Positions 18,823-29,684 of a stretch of 34,593 nucleotides of DNA are shown one piece after another (the stretch's first letter is position 1; each line of letters starts with the position of its first letter). The stretch lies in assembly GCA_037721215.1 (NCBI GenBank), contig JBBJNV010000033.1, positions 1 to 34,593 of the forward strand, read 5' to 3'. The position numbers were made by a program, and so were the translations under genes. Below the pieces are notes generated by a model. It was given only the letters and a program-made list of their open reading frames with translations, was not told the origin of the DNA and ran no database searches. Origin of the DNA: Gemmatimonadaceae bacterium (GTDB taxonomy: Bacteria; Gemmatimonadota; Gemmatimonadetes; Gemmatimonadales; Gemmatimonadaceae).

Positions 18823-21800
18823 GTGCAGGCCTCTACTGCACGCCTCCCTGATGCAGCCCGCGTGACTCAGGGCGATAGTTCAGGCTCTCCTGCTGGCAAT
18901 GCCCCGCGAATTCTGGCCGGCCACTACCGCATGGAACGGGAGCTCGGTCGGGGCGGAATGGCGACGGTCTTTCTCTGCACCGACCTGCGTGACGACCGCC
19001 GGGTAGCCTTCAAGGTCCTTAACCCCGACCTCGGCAATACCGTCACGCGTGAGAGGTTCTTGCGCGAAATAAAGTTTGTGTCCGAGTTGGACCACCCCTC
19101 GATTCCCAAGGTGATCGAGGCCGGTGTCATAGGCGAAGACCCGTTCTATGTAATGACCTATGTGACCGGCGAGTCATTGCGCGCCAGGCTGGATGGCGAG
19201 AGGCAACTTCCCATCGGCGAAGTCATTCGCATTGCGACGGGCATCCTGCAGCCGATGTCGTATGCGCACGAGCGTTCGATCGTGCACCGCGATATCAAGC
19301 CGGACAACATCCTGCTGTCGGACGACAGGGTGATCGTGCTTGATTTTGGCATTGCCCGCGCAGTCGTTGCGTCCGGCGGAGACCGGCTGACGCTCACCGG
19401 GATGGCGGTTGGTACCCCCGCGTACATGAGCCCTGAGCAGGCGGTGGGTGATCGCGAGCTGGACCTTAGGAGCGACATCTATTCACTCGGATGCGTGGTG
19501 TATGAGATGATCGCCGGGGTTGCACCCTTCACTGGGGCATCTCCGCAGATTCTCATGTTCCGGCGTTTCTCCGAAACCCCGCGGGCCCTGAGTGAAACAC
19601 GCGGCGATGTACCCGAAGCGCTCGAACGCGCAGTGTCGAAGGCGATGGCAAAAAAGGCGGAGGACAGATGGCATACGGCGGAAGCTTTTGCTGAAGCATT
19701 GACCGCCGCGGGGGTGACGGTTCCTGCGTCTGAAACAATAGATTCTGCGGCTGGCGATCCCGGCCAGGTAGCTACAACTGAGAGCCGGCGGGCGGACGGC
19801 CTCCTCGATCAGTTGCGATCGAGCTTCGCGGGCACCTACTCGGTGGAGGAGGAAATGAAAGGCGGAGGCATGAGCCGCCTTTTTCTTGCAACCGATCCCG
19901 AGCTTGGCAGGCGCGTCGTCATCAAGATTCTGCCCCCGGAGCTCACGAGCCAGATGATGCTGGCGAGGTTCCGGCGCGAAAGCGAAGTCACCGCGCGCCT
20001 GCAGCATCCGCACATCCTTCCGGTCATCTCGGCGGGCGTTCGGGACGGTCTCGCTCACTACGTAATGCCGTTTTTCGAGGGTGAGTCGTTGCGCGGCCGT
20101 CTTCAGCGGGAAGGAAAGCTGTCGATTGGTGATGGCGTACGAATCCTCCGTGAAGTGGCCGCCGCGCTCTCCTACGCTCACAAGCAGGGTGTCGTACACC
20201 GCGACATCAAGCCCGAAAACATTCTCATCCAGGACGGCCACGCCGTGCTCGCTGACTTCGGCATTGCGGCTGCGCTCGGCGGGCTTGGCAAGGAGAGCGG
20301 CGGCGAGCGCTTGACGGGAACGGGAATGTCGCTGGGTACTGTGGGTTACATGGCGCCAGAGCAGGCGCTTGGTGAGAAGAACGTTGATGCTCGCGCCGAT
20401 ATCTACGCTGTCGGTGTCGTGGGCTATGAGATTTTTGCCGGTGCGCCACCGTTTACGGGGGTGAACGATCAGGCAGTTCTCGTCGCGCATCTCACCCGCG
20501 ACGCGGTACGCCTCGATGACGTTCGCGAGGACACACCGGCCGCGGTGTCCGAGGCAATCGCGAAAGCGATGCAGAAGGACCCCGACGCCAGATACCAGAC
20601 TGCGGCAGAGTTTCGCGACGCACTCGAGGCGGCCGGTGGCGTCACGGTAGGGCGCACGCGGGTTTCTCCCTTGCGCGCGATTCGCAAGCTGCCTCTCAAG
20701 TGGAAGGCCGGGATTCCGGCGGCGGCGCTGGTGGCCGCTGCGGTAATCGCGATGGCCGTGCGATATAGAGCTGACTCGGTCGCTACGGAAGCGGTAACGA
20801 TAGCGATTGCGCCGTTCAACGCCCTCGGCACTGGACTGGAGTTGTGGCGCGAAGGCATGGTCGATGTGATGGCCAGGAATCTCGACGGAGCGGGCCCGTT
20901 GCGAACGGTATCGCCAACTGTTGCCCTAAAGGGCTTTACTACGCCTGCGACGCGTCAATCGGCGACTGAACTGGCGCGACGTACGAATGCTGACTACGCG
21001 ATCTTCGGCAGAGTGGTGGGAAGCTCCATCGATTCGGTGCGGCTATACGCCACACTCGTGAATGTCGCTACTGACGTTGCCTGGGATTATGAAGGTCGCG
21101 ATGCAAATGTCGAAAGTGCGGCGGACAAGTTCACGCTGGCGGTGCTCGCCGAGCTGGAAAAAACGCACCGGATCGGAGCCTTAAGGCAGTCGTCGCTGGG
21201 CTCGGCGTCTGTTCCAGCGATCCGCGCATTTCTCCAGGGCGAACAGTTCTATCGTCGAAGCTCGTGGGATTCTGCGTCGGTCTCATATGCCCGTGCAATC
21301 GGGTTCGATAGCAACTTTTCCATTGCCCTGCGACGTGCAGCCAAGGTCGCTGGCTGGCAGCGGAATGGCAACGATTCCCTCTCGCGTATTTTCAAGCTCC
21401 GCGCGGGACGCGCAAATCGCGGGCTGTCACCCCGGGATAGTCTGCTTGTCGTAGCGGATTCACTATCGGCATCGATTGCCACTCAATCACTCGATTCACT
21501 GAACTGGAACGACGCAAGACGGTTGTTTGCGACGGTAAATCAGGCGGCTGTGAGATACCCCAACGATCCGGACGTGTGGTATGCAGTGGGGGAGGCGCGA
21601 TTCCACACCGGATTTGGCAGTGGCGTGGCGGTGTCGGAGCGTGACGCTCTCCACGCGTTTGATCGGGCGATCGCACTTGATTCCGCGTTCAGTCCCGCCT
21701 ACGTGCACGCAATCGAGCTTGGCTTTACCCTTGACGGCGTAGCCGCGGGGCGGCGTTATCTCAGCGCTTACCGGGCGTTGAATCCAACCGATGAGGATGC

Positions 21801-22707
21801 CGTCGGCTACACTATTCTGGACGAGGTTGTGCGGGCTGGACGATTGTCGCCAGCCGTGACCGACAGCGTGCTCGACAGGGCGCTCACCAACGCGGTGTTC
21901 GCTGCTTGGTATCCAATTAGGCGATGGCCGGATTCTGCGGAAACCGCGCTCCGCCTGCTACAGTCCATCGCGAGGCGTCCGCGCAACTCGCCATCGTTTG
22001 CTTCGGACTCGGGGTTACTGCAAAGGTATCTGCCTTCAAGTCTCGCCTACCGTGGGCGGTTCAGCGAGGCGTACCTTGAACTTGGCAATCGACCGTCACT
22101 GTTATTTGTCGAGATGGCTCTGCTGGGCGCTATTCCCCGCGACACCGCGTCCGCGGTCTTCGCGCGGTGGCGGAACGAAGGCGCACCGCATGCGTATTCC
22201 GCGCTCCGATGGCTCGCTGATCACCGCGAAATCGCCGCGATACAGGAACTCGCAAGTAGCGCCGATTCAGCGACGCGCTCCGGCGGCACCGTGGGCCAGC
22301 GTGCGGCCCGATACAAAGGCGAGTCGGCGCGGGCATACCTCTCTCTCGCCAAGGGGGACACCACCGATGCTCTCAAGCGATTCAACGCACTGCCCGACAC
22401 TCTCTGTATGCGTTGCTATCTGGACAGGCTGACAACAGCACAACTCCTGGCCGCCCGCGGCAGGTTGCAAGAGGCGGCGGCACTCACACGCGAGCGAATC
22501 AACTCACTGCTGACGCCGTCGGAAGTATGGATAGCTCTGGAAAGAGGGAGGCTTGCCGCGAAGCTTGGAAAACGCTCAGAAGCGGCAAGGGCGTTTGCCC
22601 TTGTCGTCGACGCATGGTCGAGGGGTGATCCCAGCGTTCAACCGATGGTCGCCAGCGCACGGGCCGGTCTCGAAGCGGCGCGGGGTGCGACTGCCGCTGC
22701 ACGTTGA
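18823..22707 (+). CDS. Transmembrane protein with two tandem Ser/Thr kinase domains, TolB-like and TPR-type regions
   Basis: This 1294-residue protein has an unusual double kinase. Kinase domain 1 (about 35-294) has GRGGMA (42-47), Lys64, HRDIKPDN (Asp157), DFG (174-176) and GTPAYMSPEQ. Kinase domain 2 (about 339-604) has GGGM, Lys368, HRDIKPEN (Asp461), DFG (478-480) and GTVGYMAPEQ. Both look catalytically intact. A membrane helix lies at about 629-647. A TolB-like N-terminal segment (VTIAIAPFNALGTGLELWREGMVDVMARNL) starts near 658, and the rest is TPR-like helical repeats, presumably outside the membrane. The GTG start at 18823 has a GGA nearby; a later start before residue 34 is possible. 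Domain 2 is the close relative of the separate kinase at 23703. It probably senses an envelope signal and phosphorylates cytosolic targets; neither is known. Confidence 0.9.
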   Translation: MQASTARLPDAARVTQGDSSGSPAGNAPRILAGHYRMERELGRGGMATVFLCTDLRDDRRVAFKVLNPDLGNTVTRERFLREIKFVSELDHPSIPKVIEAGVIGEDPFYVMTYVTGESLRARLDGERQLPIGEVIRIATGILQPMSYAHERSIVHRDIKPDNILLSDDRVIVLDFGIARAVVASGGDRLTLTGMAVGTPAYMSPEQAVGDRELDLRSDIYSLGCVVYEMIAGVAPFTGASPQILMFRRFSETPRALSETRGDVPEALERAVSKAMAKKAEDRWHTAEAFAEALTAAGVTVPASETIDSAAGDPGQVATTESRRADGLLDQLRSSFAGTYSVEEEMKGGGMSRLFLATDPELGRRVVIKILPPELTSQMMLARFRRESEVTARLQHPHILPVISAGVRDGLAHYVMPFFEGESLRGRLQREGKLSIGDGVRILREVAAALSYAHKQGVVHRDIKPENILIQDGHAVLADFGIAAALGGLGKESGGERLTGTGMSLGTVGYMAPEQALGEKNVDARADIYAVGVVGYEIFAGAPPFTGVNDQAVLVAHLTRDAVRLDDVREDTPAAVSEAIAKAMQKDPDARYQTAAEFRDALEAAGGVTVGRTRVSPLRAIRKLPLKWKAGIPAAALVAAAVIAMAVRYRADSVATEAVTIAIAPFNALGTGLELWREGMVDVMARNLDGAGPLRTVSPTVALKGFTTPATRQSATELARRTNADYAIFGRVVGSSIDSVRLYATLVNVATDVAWDYEGRDANVESAADKFTLAVLAELEKTHRIGALRQSSLGSASVPAIRAFLQGEQFYRRSSWDSASVSYARAIGFDSNFSIALRRAAKVAGWQRNGNDSLSRIFKLRAGRANRGLSPRDSLLVVADSLSASIATQSLDSLNWNDARRLFATVNQAAVRYPNDPDVWYAVGEARFHTGFGSGVAVSERDALHAFDRAIALDSAFSPAYVHAIELGFTLDGVAAGRRYLSAYRALNPTDEDAVGYTILDEVVRAGRLSPAVTDSVLDRALTNAVFAAWYPIRRWPDSAETALRLLQSIARRPRNSPSFASDSGLLQRYLPSSLAYRGRFSEAYLELGNRPSLLFVEMALLGAIPRDTASAVFARWRNEGAPHAYSALRWLADHREIAAIQELASSADSATRSGGTVGQRAARYKGESARAYLSLAKGDTTDALKRFNALPDTLCMRCYLDRLTTAQLLAARGRLQEAAALTRERINSLLTPSEVWIALERGRLAAKLGKRSEAARAFALVVDAWSRGDPSVQPMVASARAGLEAARGATAAAR
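19801..20622 (+). repeat. Direct repeat copy 1 (kinase domain 2 of the large gene)
   Basis: This stretch encodes residues 327-600 of the tandem kinase. It aligns without protein gaps, at a constant offset of 310 residues, with residues 17-290 of the kinase at 23703, and many nucleotide stretches are near-identical. The two copies lie about 3.9 kb apart in the same orientation. Confidence 0.8.
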
Positions 22708-22904
22708 AATGATGAATCAGTGCCTCCGAGCCTGTACAAGCGCCGCAGGCTGCAGGTAACGGTCAGCGCAAGCTGATGTCACAAAGTTGTTGGCTCGATT
22801 GATTGCCGGGTTTGGCAGAGCTAAGTTGCCCCGTCCCCTGTTTTCCAGCCGCTGCGGAAGACGTCGCGGCCCCCTTGACCGGTTCGCTTGAGCCAGGAGT
22901 TACA

Positions 22905-23522
22905 ATGAGAAAGGTTTTGCTCTCGGTTGCAGTTTTTGCTTTGGCAGCCTGCCAGGAGATCAGCACATCGCCGACCGGCGCCTCTCCCGAGGTGCGCCGT
23001 GCCGTAGACGGTGGAGGCGGCGGAGGGGACGGTGTGGAATTTCCGCCACCGCCACCCTCTGACACTGGCGCCGTCGGTGTGTCAGATGGCGGCGCTTTCA
23101 GCATCAACGTCACCTATATGCTCAACAAGCCAGGCAGTTCCGGCTTCCTGTCTTTCCAGCGGAAGCAGCCTGAGGGCGTTACAGTAGACCCCAACGCGCG
23201 CGTGCAGTTGCACCAAGGCGACTTTTCTGGAAGAGGCAAACTAAGCGTTCAAACGCTGACCGGTCTGCTTGTGCTCGACCTGGCAAACGTCAGCGATCTG
23301 TCCTCCTTCGAAAGCTGCGCGGCTCCGGTCGCGCCTTCCTCCGAAGGCGTTAGTGGCGACGAAGTCGTTCCCGACAGGGGGACCTGTTTCACACTGGTCG
23401 TGGCCGGCGGAACTTTTACCTCGAACGGTCAAACCCGGCCAGTGAACGGGGCCGCTTTCCGCCCGTGCACGCCAATCAAGGGAAGTTGCCTGCAGCCGGG
23501 GACGGAAACCGGGCCGCGCTGA
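22905..23522 (+). CDS. Secreted lipoprotein, function unknown
   Basis: The 205-residue product starts with a lipoprotein signal (MRKVLLSVAVFALAAC, lipidated Cys16). A linker follows with six Gly (36-41) and five Pro (47-51), then a probable beta-rich domain (about 62-205) with Cys138, Cys161, Cys188 and Cys195, which could form two disulphides. Its core motif FSGRGKLSVQTLTGLLVLDLANVSDLSSFESC recurs, diverged, in the remnant after the second kinase gene. The ATG at 22905 follows a strong AGGAG site; the longer open frame from 22803 is not used. It lies 197 bases after the tandem kinase and ends at a strong terminator. A partnership with the kinase's extracytoplasmic half is suggested by the duplicated pairing only. 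Confidence 0.78.
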   Translation: MRKVLLSVAVFALAACQEISTSPTGASPEVRRAVDGGGGGGDGVEFPPPPPSDTGAVGVSDGGAFSINVTYMLNKPGSSGFLSFQRKQPEGVTVDPNARVQLHQGDFSGRGKLSVQTLTGLLVLDLANVSDLSSFESCAAPVAPSSEGVSGDEVVPDRGTCFTLVVAGGTFTSNGQTRPVNGAAFRPCTPIKGSCLQPGTETGPR

Positions 23523-23535
23523 GCTGCGTCGCGCA

Positions 23536-23569
23536 AAGGCCGGAGAGTCATAGCTCTCCGGCCTTTTTT
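23536..23569 (+). terminator. Strong Rho-independent terminator
   Basis: A perfect 12-bp stem (AAGGCCGGAGAG 23536-23547 with CTCTCCGGCCTT 23554-23565) and a 6-base loop are followed by six T (23564-23569). It ends the tandem-kinase/lipoprotein transcript 14 bases after the lipoprotein stop and separates it from the second kinase gene. Confidence 0.9.
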
Positions 23570-23702
23570 GCGTCGCGAGCGATCTGGCTGCGCTCGCGAG
23601 TTGCGAAGCGGTAAATACACTTAGCGTGTTTATCGAAATACGTAGACAGAAACTGCAAGCGGCCCGCGAGATCAGGGCAAGCCGCGTCACGAGACTCCAC
23701 TT

Positions 23703-24893
23703 GTGACGCGATCAGGAAGTTCGGACGAGCGTGGAAGCAATGACGGTGGGCTGATCGAGCAGCTGACAGCAGCGTTCGCAGGCACCTACCAAGTCGAAAC
23801 GGAAATGAGGGGCGGCGGTATGAGCCGCCTGTTCCTCACTAGCGACGCCGAGCTGGGCCGGCGCATCGTTATCAAGATTCTGCCGCCCGAGCTGACGAGC
23901 CAGATGATGCTGGCACGTTTTCGCCGCGAAAGCGAAGTTACCGCGCGTCTGCAGCACCCGCATATCCGGCCGGTAATCTCCGCAGGAGTTCGTGACGGTC
24001 TCGCTTGCTATATCATGCCCTTGTTCGAGGGCCAGCCACTGCGCGCTCTGCTCGAGCGCGAGGGATCGCTTCCAGTAGCAGAAGGCGTTCGTATTCTCAC
24101 CGAGGTAGCCGACGCGCTGTCCTATGCGCACAAACAGTGGGTTGCCCATCGCGACATCAAACCTGAGAACATCTTCATCCAGGATGGTCACGCTGTTCTC
24201 GCTGACTTCGGAATAGCAGCAGCACCGGGCGGAGGAATGGGCAACGAGGGCGGTGAGCGGCTCACAGGGACGGGAATGTCGCTGGGGACCGTGGGTTACA
24301 TGGCGCCGGAACAGGCGCTGGGCGACAGGAATGTGGATGCCCGCGCCGACATTTATGCGGCTGGTGTCGTCGGCTATGAGATTTTTGCCGGAGTTCCCCC
24401 GTTCACAGGACCGACCGAGCAGGCGGTTCTCGTCGCGCATCTTACTCGGGTAGCGATAAGACTCGATGATGTGCGCCGCGACACGCCGGCAGTGCTCAGC
24501 GCGACGATCGAGAAGGCGATGCAGAAGGAACATGTCGATCGGTTCCAGACCGCCGCCGAGTTTCGCGAAGCTGCTCGAGGGACAATCGCGGTCAAGTCTA
24601 AGCTGGCTTTTCGAATTCGCAGGATGCGCGGGCGACAGCGGGCGTGGAAAATTGCTTTGCCGATTGCAGCCGTCGCGGTTGCAGCGATCGCGACTACGAT
24701 TGCGATCCGGTTTCGGGGTCCGAGCGCTTCGGCCGAGTTTGTCACGTTCGCGGTTGCTCCGTTCAACGCGCCCAACGCCACGCAGGTTGGCTGCAAGTCG
24801 GCAATAAGCAGGGCGGAGGCGCTCAGGTCTCCAACGCTGCACGAGCCAGATTTCAGAACAGTGCGTTTTCCGGCAAGGGTGTCGCAGAAGTGA
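23703..24893 (+). CDS. Ser/Thr protein kinase, truncated after membrane helix
   Basis: The 396-residue product has one kinase domain (about 29-290): GGGM (38-40 region), Lys58, HRDIKPEN (Asp151), DFG (168-170) and GTVGYMAPEQ, all catalytic residues present. It is strikingly close to domain 2 of the large kinase. A basic stretch and a membrane helix follow (IALPIAAVAVAAIATTIAI, about 317-335), then the TolB-like opening FVTFAVAPFNAP. Similarity stops abruptly there. The last 35 or so residues are unrelated and come from reading a lipoprotein remnant in the wrong frame. The GTG at 23703 has a poor ribosome site. The kinase may still be active, but its sensor half is lost, so this is likely a partial duplication. 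Confidence 0.82.
   Translation: MTRSGSSDERGSNDGGLIEQLTAAFAGTYQVETEMRGGGMSRLFLTSDAELGRRIVIKILPPELTSQMMLARFRRESEVTARLQHPHIRPVISAGVRDGLACYIMPLFEGQPLRALLEREGSLPVAEGVRILTEVADALSYAHKQWVAHRDIKPENIFIQDGHAVLADFGIAAAPGGGMGNEGGERLTGTGMSLGTVGYMAPEQALGDRNVDARADIYAAGVVGYEIFAGVPPFTGPTEQAVLVAHLTRVAIRLDDVRRDTPAVLSATIEKAMQKEHVDRFQTAAEFREAARGTIAVKSKLAFRIRRMRGRQRAWKIALPIAAVAVAAIATTIAIRFRGPSASAEFVTFAVAPFNAPNATQVGCKSAISRAEALRSPTLHEPDFRTVRFPARVSQK
23751..24572 (+). repeat. Direct repeat copy 2 (kinase domain)
   Basis: Partner of the repeat at 19801-20622. Similarity in the encoded protein continues more weakly through the membrane helix to about 24775 and then ends. Confidence 0.8.
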
Positions 24894-25031
24894 CGACATC
24901 GGCAGGGATCCTCACCTTCGACCTTGCGAATATCAGCCAGTCGTCTGCATTTGTCGATTGCCGCCTCTTTGCTCAAACGTCAGGCAATCATCACCCTGAG
25001 ATCAACTGCTTCGATCCGAGACCGTCCGGTG
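24785..25031 (+). pseudogene. Frame-shifted remnant of a lipoprotein paralogue
   Basis: In a different frame from the preceding kinase, this stretch encodes GWLQVGNKQGGGAQ..., then FSGKGVAEVTTSAGILTFDLANISQSSAFVDC. It matches, position for position, residues about 80-138 of the lipoprotein at 22905 (FSGRGKLSVQTLTGLLVLDLANVSDLSSFESC). The lipoprotein's signal peptide, Gly/Pro linker and probable C-terminal disulphide part are missing. The match to the kinase family ends near 24775 and this match begins at 24785, so the junction is within about 10 bases. It has no start of its own and runs to the end of the convergent oxidoreductase gene. The best reading is a deletion scar. Confidence 0.7.
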
Positions 25032-26453
25032 TCAGCATTCCCGGAGAACCCTCCGCGCGGCGAAATAGCCGCACATACCGTGGACGCCGCCGCCTGGAGG
25101 TGTGGATGCGGAGCAGATATAGAGGCCTCTGGCCGGGGTCGAATAGAGGCTGATGGTCGGTCGCAGGAAGAGCTGTCGCACGTCCTGCGAGCCACCATTG
25201 ATATTACCGCCGACCAGGTTGGCGTTGTAGCGCTCGAGCTCGACGGGGGGCGAGACCTTCCGTCCGATGATGCAGTCGCGAAAACCGGGGGCGAACCGTT
25301 CAATCTGATTCTCAATACGCTCCGTCATGTCGAAGGTCGAACCGGCCGGGACGTGACAGTATCCCCATGCCGTGTGTTTTCCGTGGGGAGCCCGGCTGTT
25401 GTCAAACAGGCTGGGCTGCGACAGAATGACGAATGGCTTCTCCGCGTGCTGCCCCGTCGACGCTGCGTTCTCCGAATCGGCGATCTTCTCCAGAGTACCG
25501 CCGAGGTGAAGCGTAGCAGCGCGGGAACACGCTGTTGCTTTCCACGGAATTGGCGAGTTCAGCGCCCAGTCGATCTTGAATGCACCAACGTCGTAACGAA
25601 AACGCTCGAGTTTGCGGCAATACCTGCGGGGCAAACGGGCAGCAGCAATCCTCAGTACTCCGCGCGGCGTTAGATCGCAGAGTACGGCGCTGTGTGGATC
25701 CAGCAAGCCCTCAACCGAGTCTACAGGCGAGCTGGTGACGATTTCGCCGCCGATCGAACGCAGGTACGAACCCAGTGCGTTCGCCAGTTTCTGCGACCCG
25801 CCGCGCGCAATCGCCCAACCGGCCGCGTGCCCAGCCGCGCCCAGAACAAGACCGAACGAAGCCGAGAAGAGCTGGTCGAGCGACAGCATCGAATGGGCGG
25901 CGTTTCCTGCGAATAACGCCCGGGCGCGCTCGTCCCTGAAATGTCCCATTGCCAGAGTACGCGCGGAAAGCATTGCGCGCAAACCGAATTTTGCGTACGT
26001 CAGCGGATGGCGGGGAACGCGCAGCGGTCCCAGCAAGTCAGAGATGAGGTACTGCCAGTCATTCACTAATGGTGTCATGAGATCGCGGTATGCGGCAGCA
26101 TCGCGTCCCAGGTTCTCGCAGGTTTCTTCAATTGAGTGTTCGAGCGTAACGGCGGTTCCATCGTCCAGCGGATGCGCGAGAGACGCCGGGGGCTGAATCC
26201 ACTCGAGTCCGTGAGCCGCCAGCGGCAAGGTGGAAAAAAACGGCGACGCAACTGCGAGCGGATGTACACCAGAGCAGATGTCGTGGACAAAGCCGGGCAG
26301 CGTCATCTCGCCGGAACGGGTTCCTCCGCCGATCGTTTCACACGCTTCGAGCACCTGCACCGGCATCCCCTGCCGCGCCAATTCCACCGCGGCGGCGAGC
26401 CCGTTCGGACCTGACCCGATTACGGTCGAGCGCCCAATGCGGGACCGGCTCAA
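25032..26453 (-). CDS. FAD-dependent phytoene-dehydrogenase-like oxidoreductase
   Basis: The product is about 473 residues. Its N-terminal dinucleotide-binding motif is VIGSGPNGLAAAVELARQGMPVQVLEA, followed by GGGTRSGEMTLPGFVHDICSGVHPLA. The middle block GWAIARGGSQKLANALGSYLRSIGGEIVTSSPV and the C-terminal CSASTPPGGGVHGMCGYFAARRVL are typical of the NAD(P)/FAD oxidoreductase family that includes phytoene desaturases and COG1233 proteins. The substrate is unknown; no carotenoid genes are nearby. The frame is open to 26540. I favour the TTG at 26453, just after the DUF417 stop (26476), because family members begin a few residues before the GSGPNG motif; ATT or other starts nearby are possible. 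It lies 22 bases downstream of the DUF417 gene on the same strand. Confidence 0.87.
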   Translation of the reverse strand: MSRSRIGRSTVIGSGPNGLAAAVELARQGMPVQVLEACETIGGGTRSGEMTLPGFVHDICSGVHPLAVASPFFSTLPLAAHGLEWIQPPASLAHPLDDGTAVTLEHSIEETCENLGRDAAAYRDLMTPLVNDWQYLISDLLGPLRVPRHPLTYAKFGLRAMLSARTLAMGHFRDERARALFAGNAAHSMLSLDQLFSASFGLVLGAAGHAAGWAIARGGSQKLANALGSYLRSIGGEIVTSSPVDSVEGLLDPHSAVLCDLTPRGVLRIAAARLPRRYCRKLERFRYDVGAFKIDWALNSPIPWKATACSRAATLHLGGTLEKIADSENAASTGQHAEKPFVILSQPSLFDNSRAPHGKHTAWGYCHVPAGSTFDMTERIENQIERFAPGFRDCIIGRKVSPPVELERYNANLVGGNINGGSQDVRQLFLRPTISLYSTPARGLYICSASTPPGGGVHGMCGYFAARRVLREC

Positions 26454-26475
26454 TGTCCGGTGACCGTTGCTCCGG

Positions 26476-26988
26476 CTACGTGTGCACGCGGCGCGCATCG
26501 GCAGCGCGCATCGCTTCGCCTGCGGTCCAGATCGCGGCACCGAGGAAAATCAGATCCTTTGCGAGAAACCCTCCCGGCATCGGCGACAGGAATGGGAAGC
26601 CGTACCCGGGCTGCCAAACTCCGGGTGTGCTCAGCAGGAGGGTCAACGTGATCAGGAACACGCCAATTGCGCCCAGACTACCGAGCGCCGATATACGCGG
26701 GGCGAAAGCGCGTGATGCGATCATGAGGCCGAGCAGGATTTCGACGCAGCCAATCAACCTTGCGGCCGATGCGCCACTCATGATGCTCAACATCCAGGAC
26801 ATGAGCGGAGACTCGGCGACGAGGTCAGCGACACCTTTCGCTTCATAGGCCGCAAACTTTAGCGCTCCGATCCAGATCAGGACCATGGCAAGCCCATATC
26901 TGAGGACGCGGGCGCCGACACTCTCCAGCCCGCTTCGGCTGATGTCCGCACGTGACTTATGGTCCGTCCGATTCACCGTGGTCGCCAT
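26476..26988 (-). CDS. DUF417 (RclC/YkgB-like) membrane protein
   Basis: The 170-residue, four-helix membrane protein matches the DUF417 pattern: WIGALKFAAYEAKGVADLVAESPLMSW, IGCVEILLGLMIAS, ITLTLLLSTPGVW and GGFLAKDLIFLGAAIW. E. coli RclC of this family belongs to the reactive-chlorine response; the biochemical role is not established. A strong AGGAG site precedes the ATG at 26988. It is followed on the same strand by the FAD oxidoreductase after a short gap, so both may be redox-stress genes in one operon (inference). It ends with a TAG stop. Confidence 0.85.
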   Translation of the reverse strand: MATTVNRTDHKSRADISRSGLESVGARVLRYGLAMVLIWIGALKFAAYEAKGVADLVAESPLMSWMLSIMSGASAARLIGCVEILLGLMIASRAFAPRISALGSLGAIGVFLITLTLLLSTPGVWQPGYGFPFLSPMPGGFLAKDLIFLGAAIWTAGEAMRAADARRVHT

Positions 26989-27315: not shown

Positions 27316-27474
27316 TCACGATCCTTCCCGGACGATATCCAGCGCGTGGTATCCCTTCACTCTATATATGACGGCGGCAATCAACCAGCTCAGTACAAAG
27401 ACGCCGATGATCAGGTAACCGAGGCTGCCAAAGTTGGAGCTCAGCGTACCGATGGCGTCCCAGAAAGTCCACTA
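27316..27474 (-). pseudogene. Conserved C-terminal end of the NiCoT permease, beyond an in-frame TAG
   Basis: After the TAG at 27472-27474 the same frame continues for 51 sense codons to a TGA at 27316-27318. It encodes WTFWDAIGTLSSNFGSLGYL, then a helix (IIGVFVLSWLIAAVIY) and RVKGYHALD. This is the normal last helix and tail of NiCoT permeases. With it, the full reading frame would be 343 positions, the usual family length. No frameshift is needed; one base change would restore the gene. Confidence 0.8.
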
Positions 27475-28347
27475 CAGTGACAGTTTCTCGCTGAGCAGGC
27501 CGAGCGCTTCGATGCCTCCGACAAGCACGGCGACGACGATCGAAACCGCTGTGATCGTAAGGTTGTAATAGAGCTTGCGAACTGGCTGAGTGAACGCCCA
27601 CCCGTAGGCACCGAGCATGAGTACGCTGTCAATTGTGTCGACGAGGGACATTCCAGCGGTAAACAATGCTCGAAAAACGAGGATCGACCAGATGGGCATG
27701 CCAGTGGATGCTTCAGCCGCGGAGATTCCCAGAAGTCCGATCTCCGTAGCAGTATCAAATCCACGTCCGAACAGAAATCCCAGCGGATACATGTGCCAGC
27801 TACGGCTGATGACGGCGAAGACGGGGCGGAACAATCTGCCAAGCAGCCTTCCGCCTCCGGTCATCTGGTCGAGATCATCGCCGGTATAAGAACCCCCTGC
27901 CCGCACCCGGCGGAAGGCGCGGTAGACGTCGGCGAAGATGAAGAGTTTCATCACCGCGATCACGAGCAGAAAAGTGGCTGAGATGATCGTTCCGATGGTC
28001 CCGCCCAAGGGACGGTATGCAGCCAGCGGTCCGTTCAGCGCGGTCGCGGCGACAGCGATGGCTACCGATGCGATCACAACCACGGTGGAGTGACCGAGCG
28101 AAAACCAGAGTCCGACGGCGACGGGCCGCTGACCGCTTTGCATCAGCTTTCGGGTCACGTTGTCGATGGCCGCGGTGTGATCTGCGTCCAGCGCGTGTCG
28201 CAACCCGAGTCCGTACGCAAGGAGTGCGGTACCCGGCAATAGCGGAAATTCACGGAACGCGATAAGCGCCCACGCCCATGCTCCGAGGTTCGCGATAACC
28301 AGCAGCGCGAAGATGACAATGACCCGTCCCATCGTACTGTCGCCCAC
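27472..28347 (-). CDS. NiCoT-family nickel/cobalt permease, interrupted by an in-frame TAG
   Basis: The 291-residue product is a high-affinity nickel/cobalt uptake permease of the HoxN/NixA family. The signature GLRHALDADHTAAIDNVTRKLM (helix 2) holds the metal-selectivity His/Asp residues. LWFSLGHSTVVV, LFGRGFDTATEIGLL and MSLVDTIDSVLMLGAYGWAF are the other family motifs. Seven helices are present; the eighth lies beyond the TAG. The start may be GTG 28347 or ATG 28332; neither has a decisive ribosome site. It diverges from the hyp genes, which fits nickel supply for a [NiFe] hydrogenase. Loss of the last helix may abolish or weaken transport unless the stop is read through or is a sequencing error. 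TAG is an ordinary stop elsewhere in this window (rpsT, hypD, the DUF417 gene). Confidence 0.85.
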   Translation of the reverse strand: MGDSTMGRVIVIFALLVIANLGAWAWALIAFREFPLLPGTALLAYGLGLRHALDADHTAAIDNVTRKLMQSGQRPVAVGLWFSLGHSTVVVIASVAIAVAATALNGPLAAYRPLGGTIGTIISATFLLVIAVMKLFIFADVYRAFRRVRAGGSYTGDDLDQMTGGGRLLGRLFRPVFAVISRSWHMYPLGFLFGRGFDTATEIGLLGISAAEASTGMPIWSILVFRALFTAGMSLVDTIDSVLMLGAYGWAFTQPVRKLYYNLTITAVSIVVAVLVGGIEALGLLSEKLSL

Positions 28348-28414
28348 CGTATCCGAGGGCTTCAGTTCAGCGCCGCGAAACGCTAGCTTCGCATAAGGAA
28401 GATGTGAGACCGCG

Positions 28415-28525
28415 ATGCTCCAGGGCGTGGTTCAGGCGCGCGAATATGGGCCATTGCGACGGCGGGGAGGTTTAAGTGAGGATGAGGATGCGATGCGCGA
28501 ACTCGAGGGCTACCAATTCAGCTAG
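28415..28525 (+). CDS. Possible 36-residue small protein upstream of hypD
   Basis: This short frame (MLQGVVQAREYGPLRRR..., ending ELEGYQFS) lies on the hyp operon strand, 43 bases before hypD. It has a possible GAG ribosome contact 7 bases before the ATG and an acidic C-terminal half. I do not recognise it. It could be a small accessory protein, the tail of a decayed gene or chance. Confidence 0.25.
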   Translation: MLQGVVQAREYGPLRRRGGLSEDEDAMRELEGYQFS

Positions 28526-28568
28526 GCGCGGGTACACGGGCATTGCATTCGACAGAGGATGAGAGGCG

Positions 28569-29684
28569 ATGAAATTTGTCGATGAATTCCGCGATGCACA
28601 TCTGATCCGGCAGGCCGCAGGGGAGATTCGCCGACTGGCGGACCCAGCGCGGCACTATCGGTTGATGGAGGTGTGCGGCGGTCACACGCACGCCATCTAT
28701 CGCTTTGCGTTGAAGGACGTGTTGCCGGACAACATCGAGCTGGTCCATGGGCCCGGCTGCCCCGTGTGCGTGCTCCCCATGGGCAGGGTCGACGATGGCT
28801 TGTCGATTGCCAGCGACCCGAAAGTGATCCTCGCGACATTTGGCGACATGATGCGCGTGCCGGGCCGGAACGGAACGCCACTCGAGCACAAGGCGCGCGG
28901 CGCAGACATCCGGATGGTTTACTCGCCGCTTGACGCGCTCAAGCTCGCTGAAAAAAATCCCGATCGCGAAGTGGTGTTTTTCGCTATCGGGTTCGAGACG
29001 ACCGCACCATCCACGGCGCTCACTCTGATGCGCGCCCGCGCACTCGGTATCAGAAATTTCTCGGTCTTCTGCAACCACGTTACGATCATTCCGGCGATCC
29101 GGGCAATTCTCGATTCGCCGGACATGCGGATCGAGGCATTCATCGGGCCGGGACACGTGTCAACAGTCATCGGCTGCCGGCCGTACGAATTCATCTGCCG
29201 GGACTATAAGCGTCCACTGGTTACGTCCGGCTTCGAGCCGCTGGACGTTCTGCAGTCGATCGTGATGATTCTTCGCCAGCTCGAGGCGGGAACAGCGTTT
29301 GTCGAGAACCAGTACGCCCGCGTGGTTCCGTGGGAAGGCAATCTGCCGGCACTGCGCGCGATGGCCGAAGTGTTCGAGTTGCGGCCCTATTTCGAGTGGC
29401 GAGGGCTCGGATTCATTTCGCAGTCGGCGCTCAAACTGCGCGACAGTTACGCCGCTTGGGACGCAGAAAGCCGGTTTCATATTCCGGGTATTCGCGTAAC
29501 GGATCCCAAGGCCGCGCAGTGTGGCGAGGTTCTGAAGGGTGTGCTCAAGCCGCATCAATGCAAACTGTTCGGCCGCGAGTGCACGCCGGAGAAGCCGGTA
29601 GGCGCGTTGATGGTGTCTTCTGAAGGAGCATGCGCGGCGTATTACAACTACGCGCTCCGCACGACGGCCGCGGCAGCGGTATAG
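28569..29684 (+). CDS. hypD: Hydrogenase maturation factor HypD
   Basis: HypD carries a [4Fe-4S] cluster and, with HypC, is the scaffold on which Fe(CN)2CO is built for the [NiFe] hydrogenase active site. The 371-residue product shows MEVCGGHTHAIYR (Cys36), GPGCPVCVLP (Cys64, Cys67) and the C-terminal cluster ligands Cys318, Cys331, Cys338 and Cys355. FCNHVTIIPAIRAIL and FIGPGHVSTVIG are further family blocks. AGAGGA lies 9 bases before the ATG at 28569. It is the first large gene of hypD-hypE-SIS-Grx-hypF; its partner HypC is not encoded in the window. Confidence 0.96.
   Translation: MKFVDEFRDAHLIRQAAGEIRRLADPARHYRLMEVCGGHTHAIYRFALKDVLPDNIELVHGPGCPVCVLPMGRVDDGLSIASDPKVILATFGDMMRVPGRNGTPLEHKARGADIRMVYSPLDALKLAEKNPDREVVFFAIGFETTAPSTALTLMRARALGIRNFSVFCNHVTIIPAIRAILDSPDMRIEAFIGPGHVSTVIGCRPYEFICRDYKRPLVTSGFEPLDVLQSIVMILRQLEAGTAFVENQYARVVPWEGNLPALRAMAEVFELRPYFEWRGLGFISQSALKLRDSYAAWDAESRFHIPGIRVTDPKAAQCGEVLKGVLKPHQCKLFGRECTPEKPVGALMVSSEGACAAYYNYALRTTAAAAV

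What the first reader, a model, noticed from the sequence alone, without database searches (positions are those of the whole stretch)
23703..25031. Collapsed duplicate of a kinase-lipoprotein unit: deletion scar joining kinase to lipoprotein out of frame
Kinase similarity to the large gene runs to VAPFNAP (about 24775). Within about 10 bases a lipoprotein-like sequence begins in another frame (FSGKG...GILTFDLANISQSSAFVDC), matching the lipoprotein at 22905. The neighbouring intact order is kinase, TolB/TPR half, lipoprotein, so an ancestral second copy that lost everything between TolB start and lipoprotein core explains both the truncation and the remnant. Alternatively, a kinase-helix-beta-domain fusion exists and a single frame error hides it.
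Basis: partly seen in the sequence, partly recalled or inferred. Interest (0 to 1): 0.6.

Follow-up and report, generated by a model that had tools for sequence, protein, structure and literature searches.

The report
Broken second kinase–lipoprotein gene pair
In a bacterium of the Gemmatimonadaceae an old duplicate of a sensor-kinase gene and its lipoprotein neighbour has lost its middle (about 2.3 kb), leaving a kinase without its sensor joined out of frame to a lipoprotein fragment: an ordinary gene-decay scar, which also points to a small unnamed lipoprotein family that travels with these kinases.

Summary
ORF 23703-24893 is a paralogue of the second kinase domain of the large gene (71% amino-acid identity up to APFNA). 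From 24782, in another frame, 60 codons match residues 79-138 of the lipoprotein at 22905 without a gap (40%; E 7e-7 genome-wide). A profile of eight relatives that excludes the remnant finds it at E 2e-9; the next frame in the window scores 0.6. In relatives the lipoprotein follows a kinase-TolB/TPR gene (four in the genus, three outside) or precedes it (one), so this is a conserved pair and the locus is a collapsed second pair. None of the 12 other lipoprotein-family hits in 179 genomes is fused to a kinase, and a frame error alone could not remove ~620 kinase and 78 lipoprotein residues. Two additions: the remnant is also cut at its 3' end, beside an oxidoreductase not found in the 18 other genus genomes; and the kinase was long under purifying selection but carries nine substitutions at conserved columns against none in its sister, suggesting recent relaxation. 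No intact second copy was found, so the deletion is inferred. An ordinary decay scar; the lipoprotein family has no Pfam model.

The parts
18823..22707 (+). Intact first copy: tandem Ser/Thr kinase domains, TM segment, TolB-like/TPR ectodomain (1294 aa)
Evidence: PF00069 twice, E 1.9e-88; orthologue in G006 syntenic.
22905..23522 (+). Intact lipoprotein-type gene downstream (205 aa, signal peptide with a lipobox-like LAAC motif)
   Evidence: sequence; conserved next to kinase-TolB/TPR genes; no Pfam family
23537..23570 (+). Intrinsic terminator-like hairpin closing the first unit
   Evidence: hairpin followed by T run, shuffle z -5.6
23703..24779 (+). Second copy: kinase domain, juxtamembrane segment, one TM helix (k2 residues about 317-335), start of ectodomain to APFNAP
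   Evidence: 71% identity to second kinase domain of the first copy; PF00069 E 2.1e-35; hydropathy
24771..24785 (+). Junction (inferred deletion scar); about 2.3 kb of the first unit (20824-23138) has no counterpart in the second
24780..24893 (+). 37-residue out-of-frame tail of the kinase ORF, read through lipoprotein DNA, to the stop at 24891-24893
24782..24967 (+). Lipoprotein remnant matching residues 79-140 of the intact lipoprotein; no signal peptide, no C-terminus
25032..26540 (-). Convergent FAD-dependent oxidoreductase whose stop abuts the truncated 3' end of the remnant; not in the other 18 genus genomes searched

Best explanation
The locus is a decayed tandem duplicate of a two-gene unit: a membrane kinase with a TolB/TPR sensor half, followed by a lipoprotein. 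The unit was duplicated long ago. Later a deletion of about 2.3 kb in the second copy joined the kinase just after its transmembrane helix to the core of the lipoprotein in another frame, and the 3' end of that lipoprotein was lost beside an oxidoreductase gene that other genus members lack. What remains can still make a membrane-anchored kinase of 396 residues with a meaningless 37-residue tail and no sensor; the lipoprotein fragment has no signal peptide and is probably not made. Shown: homology of both fragments, conserved gene pair, absence of fusion precedents, absence of the lost half elsewhere in the genome, faster substitution in the truncated copy. Inferred: the single deletion, its timing, and decline of function.
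For: Both fragments are homologous to the two ends of the intact neighbour unit. The pair is conserved: lipoprotein directly after kinase-TolB/TPR in G001, G006, G008, G138, G162 and L101, after one intervening gene in G004, directly before it in G032. Tandem copies of these kinase-TolB/TPR genes have precedents (L048 two copies, L102 a row). Divergence of kinase (71%) and remnant (40%) in the second copy resembles that of orthologues (G006: 68% and 29%), as expected if both were duplicated together. The missing half is nowhere else in a 96.6% complete genome. k2 groups with the second kinase domains of tandem-kinase genes (100/99) and beside its own neighbour (86/75). dN 0.14 and dS 1.34 in the kinase part, and no stop in 340 codons (2% expected in a neutral simulation with half the changes on this branch), show long constraint; nine k2-specific changes at columns at least 80% conserved against none in the sister, among them G146W just before HRD, suggest later relaxation.
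Against: No relative with an intact second copy is held, so the ancestral state is reconstructed. The sister grouping of k2 with its neighbour is only 86/75. Catalytic motifs (VIK lysine, HRD, DFG, APE) are all present in k2, so the kinase may be alive. The 3' breakpoint of the remnant is a second event that a single deletion does not explain.
Confidence: 0.85

Rival explanations
1. A genuine kinase-TM-beta-domain fusion hidden by one sequencing frame error at about 24775-24785.
For: The two frames would join after a shift of one base; the topology (extracytoplasmic after the TM helix) would fit; the remnant frame is open.
Against: None of the 12 other lipoprotein-family hits in 179 genomes (35 genera) lies in a kinase ORF; their open frames are 95-286 aa. 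The fragment lacks its C-terminal third too, and the kinase lacks the ectodomain that its membrane-bound relatives have. A deletion is needed anyway.
Confidence: 0.05
2. The truncated kinase is a stable, useful product: a sensor-less membrane kinase that partners or modulates the intact neighbour, with the lipoprotein fragment as mere downstream junk. This shares the duplication-deletion history of the best explanation and differs on the function that remains.
For: Catalytic motifs intact, long purifying selection; a further paralogue in the same genome (contig C10) is a tandem kinase without TM and ectodomain, so sensor-less forms exist.
Against: Nine changes at conserved columns against none in the sister, lower Pfam score than its relatives (122.8 against 140-152), a 37-residue out-of-frame tail, no terminator-like site behind it on the + strand.
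Confidence: 0.25
3. Assembly chimera that joins two distant places.
For: The genome is a 45-contig assembly; reads could not be inspected.
Against: The two kinase copies are only 76% identical in DNA, too different to be collapsed by an assembler, and the lipoprotein has no third match in the genome from which the fragment could have come.
Confidence: 0.04

Closest known systems
Hanks-type bacterial Ser/Thr protein kinases with an extracytoplasmic TolB-like/TPR half (Gemmatimonadaceae paralogue family; PF00069)
   Same: Kinase domain with all catalytic motifs, juxtamembrane segment, single TM helix
   Different: The second copy has one kinase domain instead of two and ends about 20 residues after the TM helix instead of carrying ~620 residues of ectodomain
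Unnamed lipoprotein family next to these kinases (relatives in G001, G004, G006, G008, G138, G162, G032)
   Same: 60-residue beta core with the conserved GxG motif (SGKG)
   Different: Only the core is left; no signal peptide, no lipobox, no C-terminus
Gene remnants left by duplication followed by deletion
   Same: Two fragments in the ancestral order, out of frame at the junction
   Different: The upstream fragment is still an open, largely conserved kinase frame

Membership tests
Hanks-type Ser/Thr kinase (PF00069) | Profile match above the gathering score | tested here: met
   122.8 bits against a cut-off of 31.7
Hanks-type Ser/Thr kinase (PF00069) | Catalytic motifs VIK, HRDxxxxN, DFG, APE present | tested here: met
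   alignment of 15 kinase domains
Hanks-type Ser/Thr kinase (PF00069) | Kinase activity | not testable with these tools
   needs an assay
Kinase-TolB/TPR receptor subfamily | TM helix followed by TolB-like/TPR ectodomain | tested here: not met
   TM present, ectodomain missing after APFNAP
Kinase-linked lipoprotein family | Profile match of the beta core | tested here: met
   E 2.1e-9 with a profile that excludes the remnant
Kinase-linked lipoprotein family | Signal peptide with lipobox cysteine and full-length C-terminus | tested here: not met
   match covers residues 79-140 of 205 only
Kinase-lipoprotein fusion protein | Single in-frame ORF in some relative | tested here: not met
   12 other hits in 179 genomes, none in a kinase ORF
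Collapsed tandem duplicate | Intact second copy in a close relative | tested here: inconclusive
   no genome close enough is held; genus relatives with a strong match have one copy

The most novel reading that the evidence does not exclude
The sensor-less kinase is kept as a working partner of the intact tandem kinase, so that deletion of a receptor half created a signalling-blind subunit; and the conserved lipoprotein is the ligand-binding or anchoring accessory of a TolB/TPR receptor kinase, an undescribed receptor pair in Gemmatimonadaceae.
Probability: 0.15. Interest if true: 0.45.

Novelty: new member of a known kind. Interest (0 to 1): 0.22.

Why it matters
Gene duplication followed by deletion is commonplace, so the scar itself is ordinary. 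Its use is as evidence: because the remnant lies where the neighbour unit predicts, it led to a small lipoprotein family without a Pfam model that sits beside TolB/TPR receptor kinases in several genera, and it shows how kinase paralogues in this kinase-rich lineage (34 matches in one genome) lose their sensor halves.

Tried and rejected
A scan of named genomes for the lipoprotein found no relative; the family is too divergent for peptide patterns. The structure model of the lipoprotein is a beta protein with a more confident core (residues 71-130, block pLDDT 70-89) but mean 61.9, and no PDB fold matched (none at E <= 0.001), so no function follows from it. Literature searches gave nothing relevant. 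Considered and rejected: frame error hiding a fusion; assembly chimera; chance similarity. The profile hit for the remnant (E 1.3e-24) is inflated, since the remnant was in that alignment, and is not used as evidence. The lipoprotein remnant was too short and too diverged (pS 0.78, saturated) for a selection test of its own.

Full report
What is there. The window is one contig of a genome whose nearest named records are Gemmatimonadaceae. The large gene 18823-22707 has two kinase domains, a TM helix and a TolB-like/TPR half; a 205-residue lipoprotein-type gene follows at 22905 and a strong terminator-like hairpin at about 23537-23570 closes the unit. Next comes ORF 23703-24893 (k2).

Check of the observation. 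k2 residues 16-356 are 71% identical to the second kinase domain of the large gene, including juxtamembrane and TM segments, and similarity stops at APFNA. From 24782 in another frame the translation AGWLQVGNKQGGGAQVSNAARARFQNSAFSGKGVAEVTTSAGILTFDLANISQSSAFVDC aligns without a gap to lipoprotein residues 79-138 (40%). It is the only other match to the lipoprotein in the genome (E 7.2e-7). A profile built from eight relatives without the remnant finds it at E 2.1e-9, the next frame of the window at 0.62. It is not chance.

The unit is real. In the same genus the lipoprotein follows the kinase-TolB/TPR gene in G001, G006 and G008, and in G004 after one intervening gene; in other genera it follows directly in G138 and G162, and a named record (L101) shows the same; in G032 it precedes the kinase. 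G006 also shares the upstream genes: transhydrogenase, cation efflux, tandem kinase, lipoprotein. Rows of kinase-TolB/TPR genes occur in L048 and L102, so tandem duplication of this gene type has precedents.

History. k2 falls among second kinase domains of tandem-kinase genes (support 100/99) and next to its neighbour (86/75). Since the other members of that clade all carry an N-terminal kinase domain, k2 probably lost one; this is inference on weak support. Silent differences are near saturation (dS 1.36) while the kinase part has dN 0.14, and 340 codons have no stop, which a neutral simulation gives in 2% of trials with half the changes on this branch. k2 was therefore under selection for most of its life. 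Against its sister it has nine changes at conserved columns and the sister none; relative-rate counts are 38 to 19 with G006 as outgroup (chi2 6.3; 25 to 16, chi2 2.0, with the more distant G008). This fits relaxation after the collapse, though a shift of function would look alike.

The collapse. Compared with the first unit, about 2.3 kb (equivalent of 20824-23138) is missing between the two fragments. The missing TolB/TPR half is not elsewhere in the genome: the only other matches are 27-28% identical. The remnant also lacks about residues 139-205, and 65 bases further lies the stop of a convergent FAD-dependent oxidoreductase that is full-length against its homologues, not found in the 18 other genus genomes and present in 16 other genomes of the family. 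Arrival of that gene may have cut the 3' end; this is inference.

The fusion alternative. The 12 other lipoprotein-family hits in 179 genomes of 35 genera lie in open frames of 95-286 residues, none in a kinase. A one-base error could not account for the missing ectodomain, signal peptide and C-terminus.

Mechanism. The most likely product is a membrane-anchored kinase without sensor, carrying a 37-residue tail read out of frame through lipoprotein DNA. Catalytic motifs are intact, so activity cannot be excluded; changes such as G146W beside HRD and the lower profile score speak for decline. The lipoprotein fragment has no signal peptide and no evident start of its own.

Verdict. The by-product of some interest is an unnamed lipoprotein family (no Pfam model; no fold match) tied to TolB/TPR receptor kinases.

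Noticed in passing
window 22905-23522; L041 2706-3251, L042 7755-8258, L044 7963-8595, L087 2971-3510, L088 5856-6344, L047 7637-8248, L101 4741-5313: Unnamed lipoprotein family, no Pfam model, conserved beside kinase-TolB/TPR genes in several Gemmatimonadaceae genera; beta core with GxG motif.
   Followed up: partly
L046 6824-8695 (own genome, contig C10): A further paralogue: tandem kinase of 623 aa without TM helix and TolB/TPR half, so sensor-less forms exist at two places in this genome.
   Followed up: partly
whole genome G000: 34 matches to the kinase domain in a 3.5 Mb genome: a strong expansion of Ser/Thr kinases.
   Followed up: no
window 25032-26540: FAD-dependent oxidoreductase not found in the 18 other genus genomes but in scattered genera of the family (52-59% identity); possibly acquired by transfer.
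   Followed up: partly
window 27472-29684: NicO nickel transporter and HypD lie next to each other, suggesting hydrogenase maturation genes in this part of the window.
   Followed up: no
L102 1-9327: A record titled Gammaproteobacteria MAG holds a row of kinase-TolB/TPR genes like those of Gemmatimonadaceae; the title may be a misassignment.
   Followed up: no
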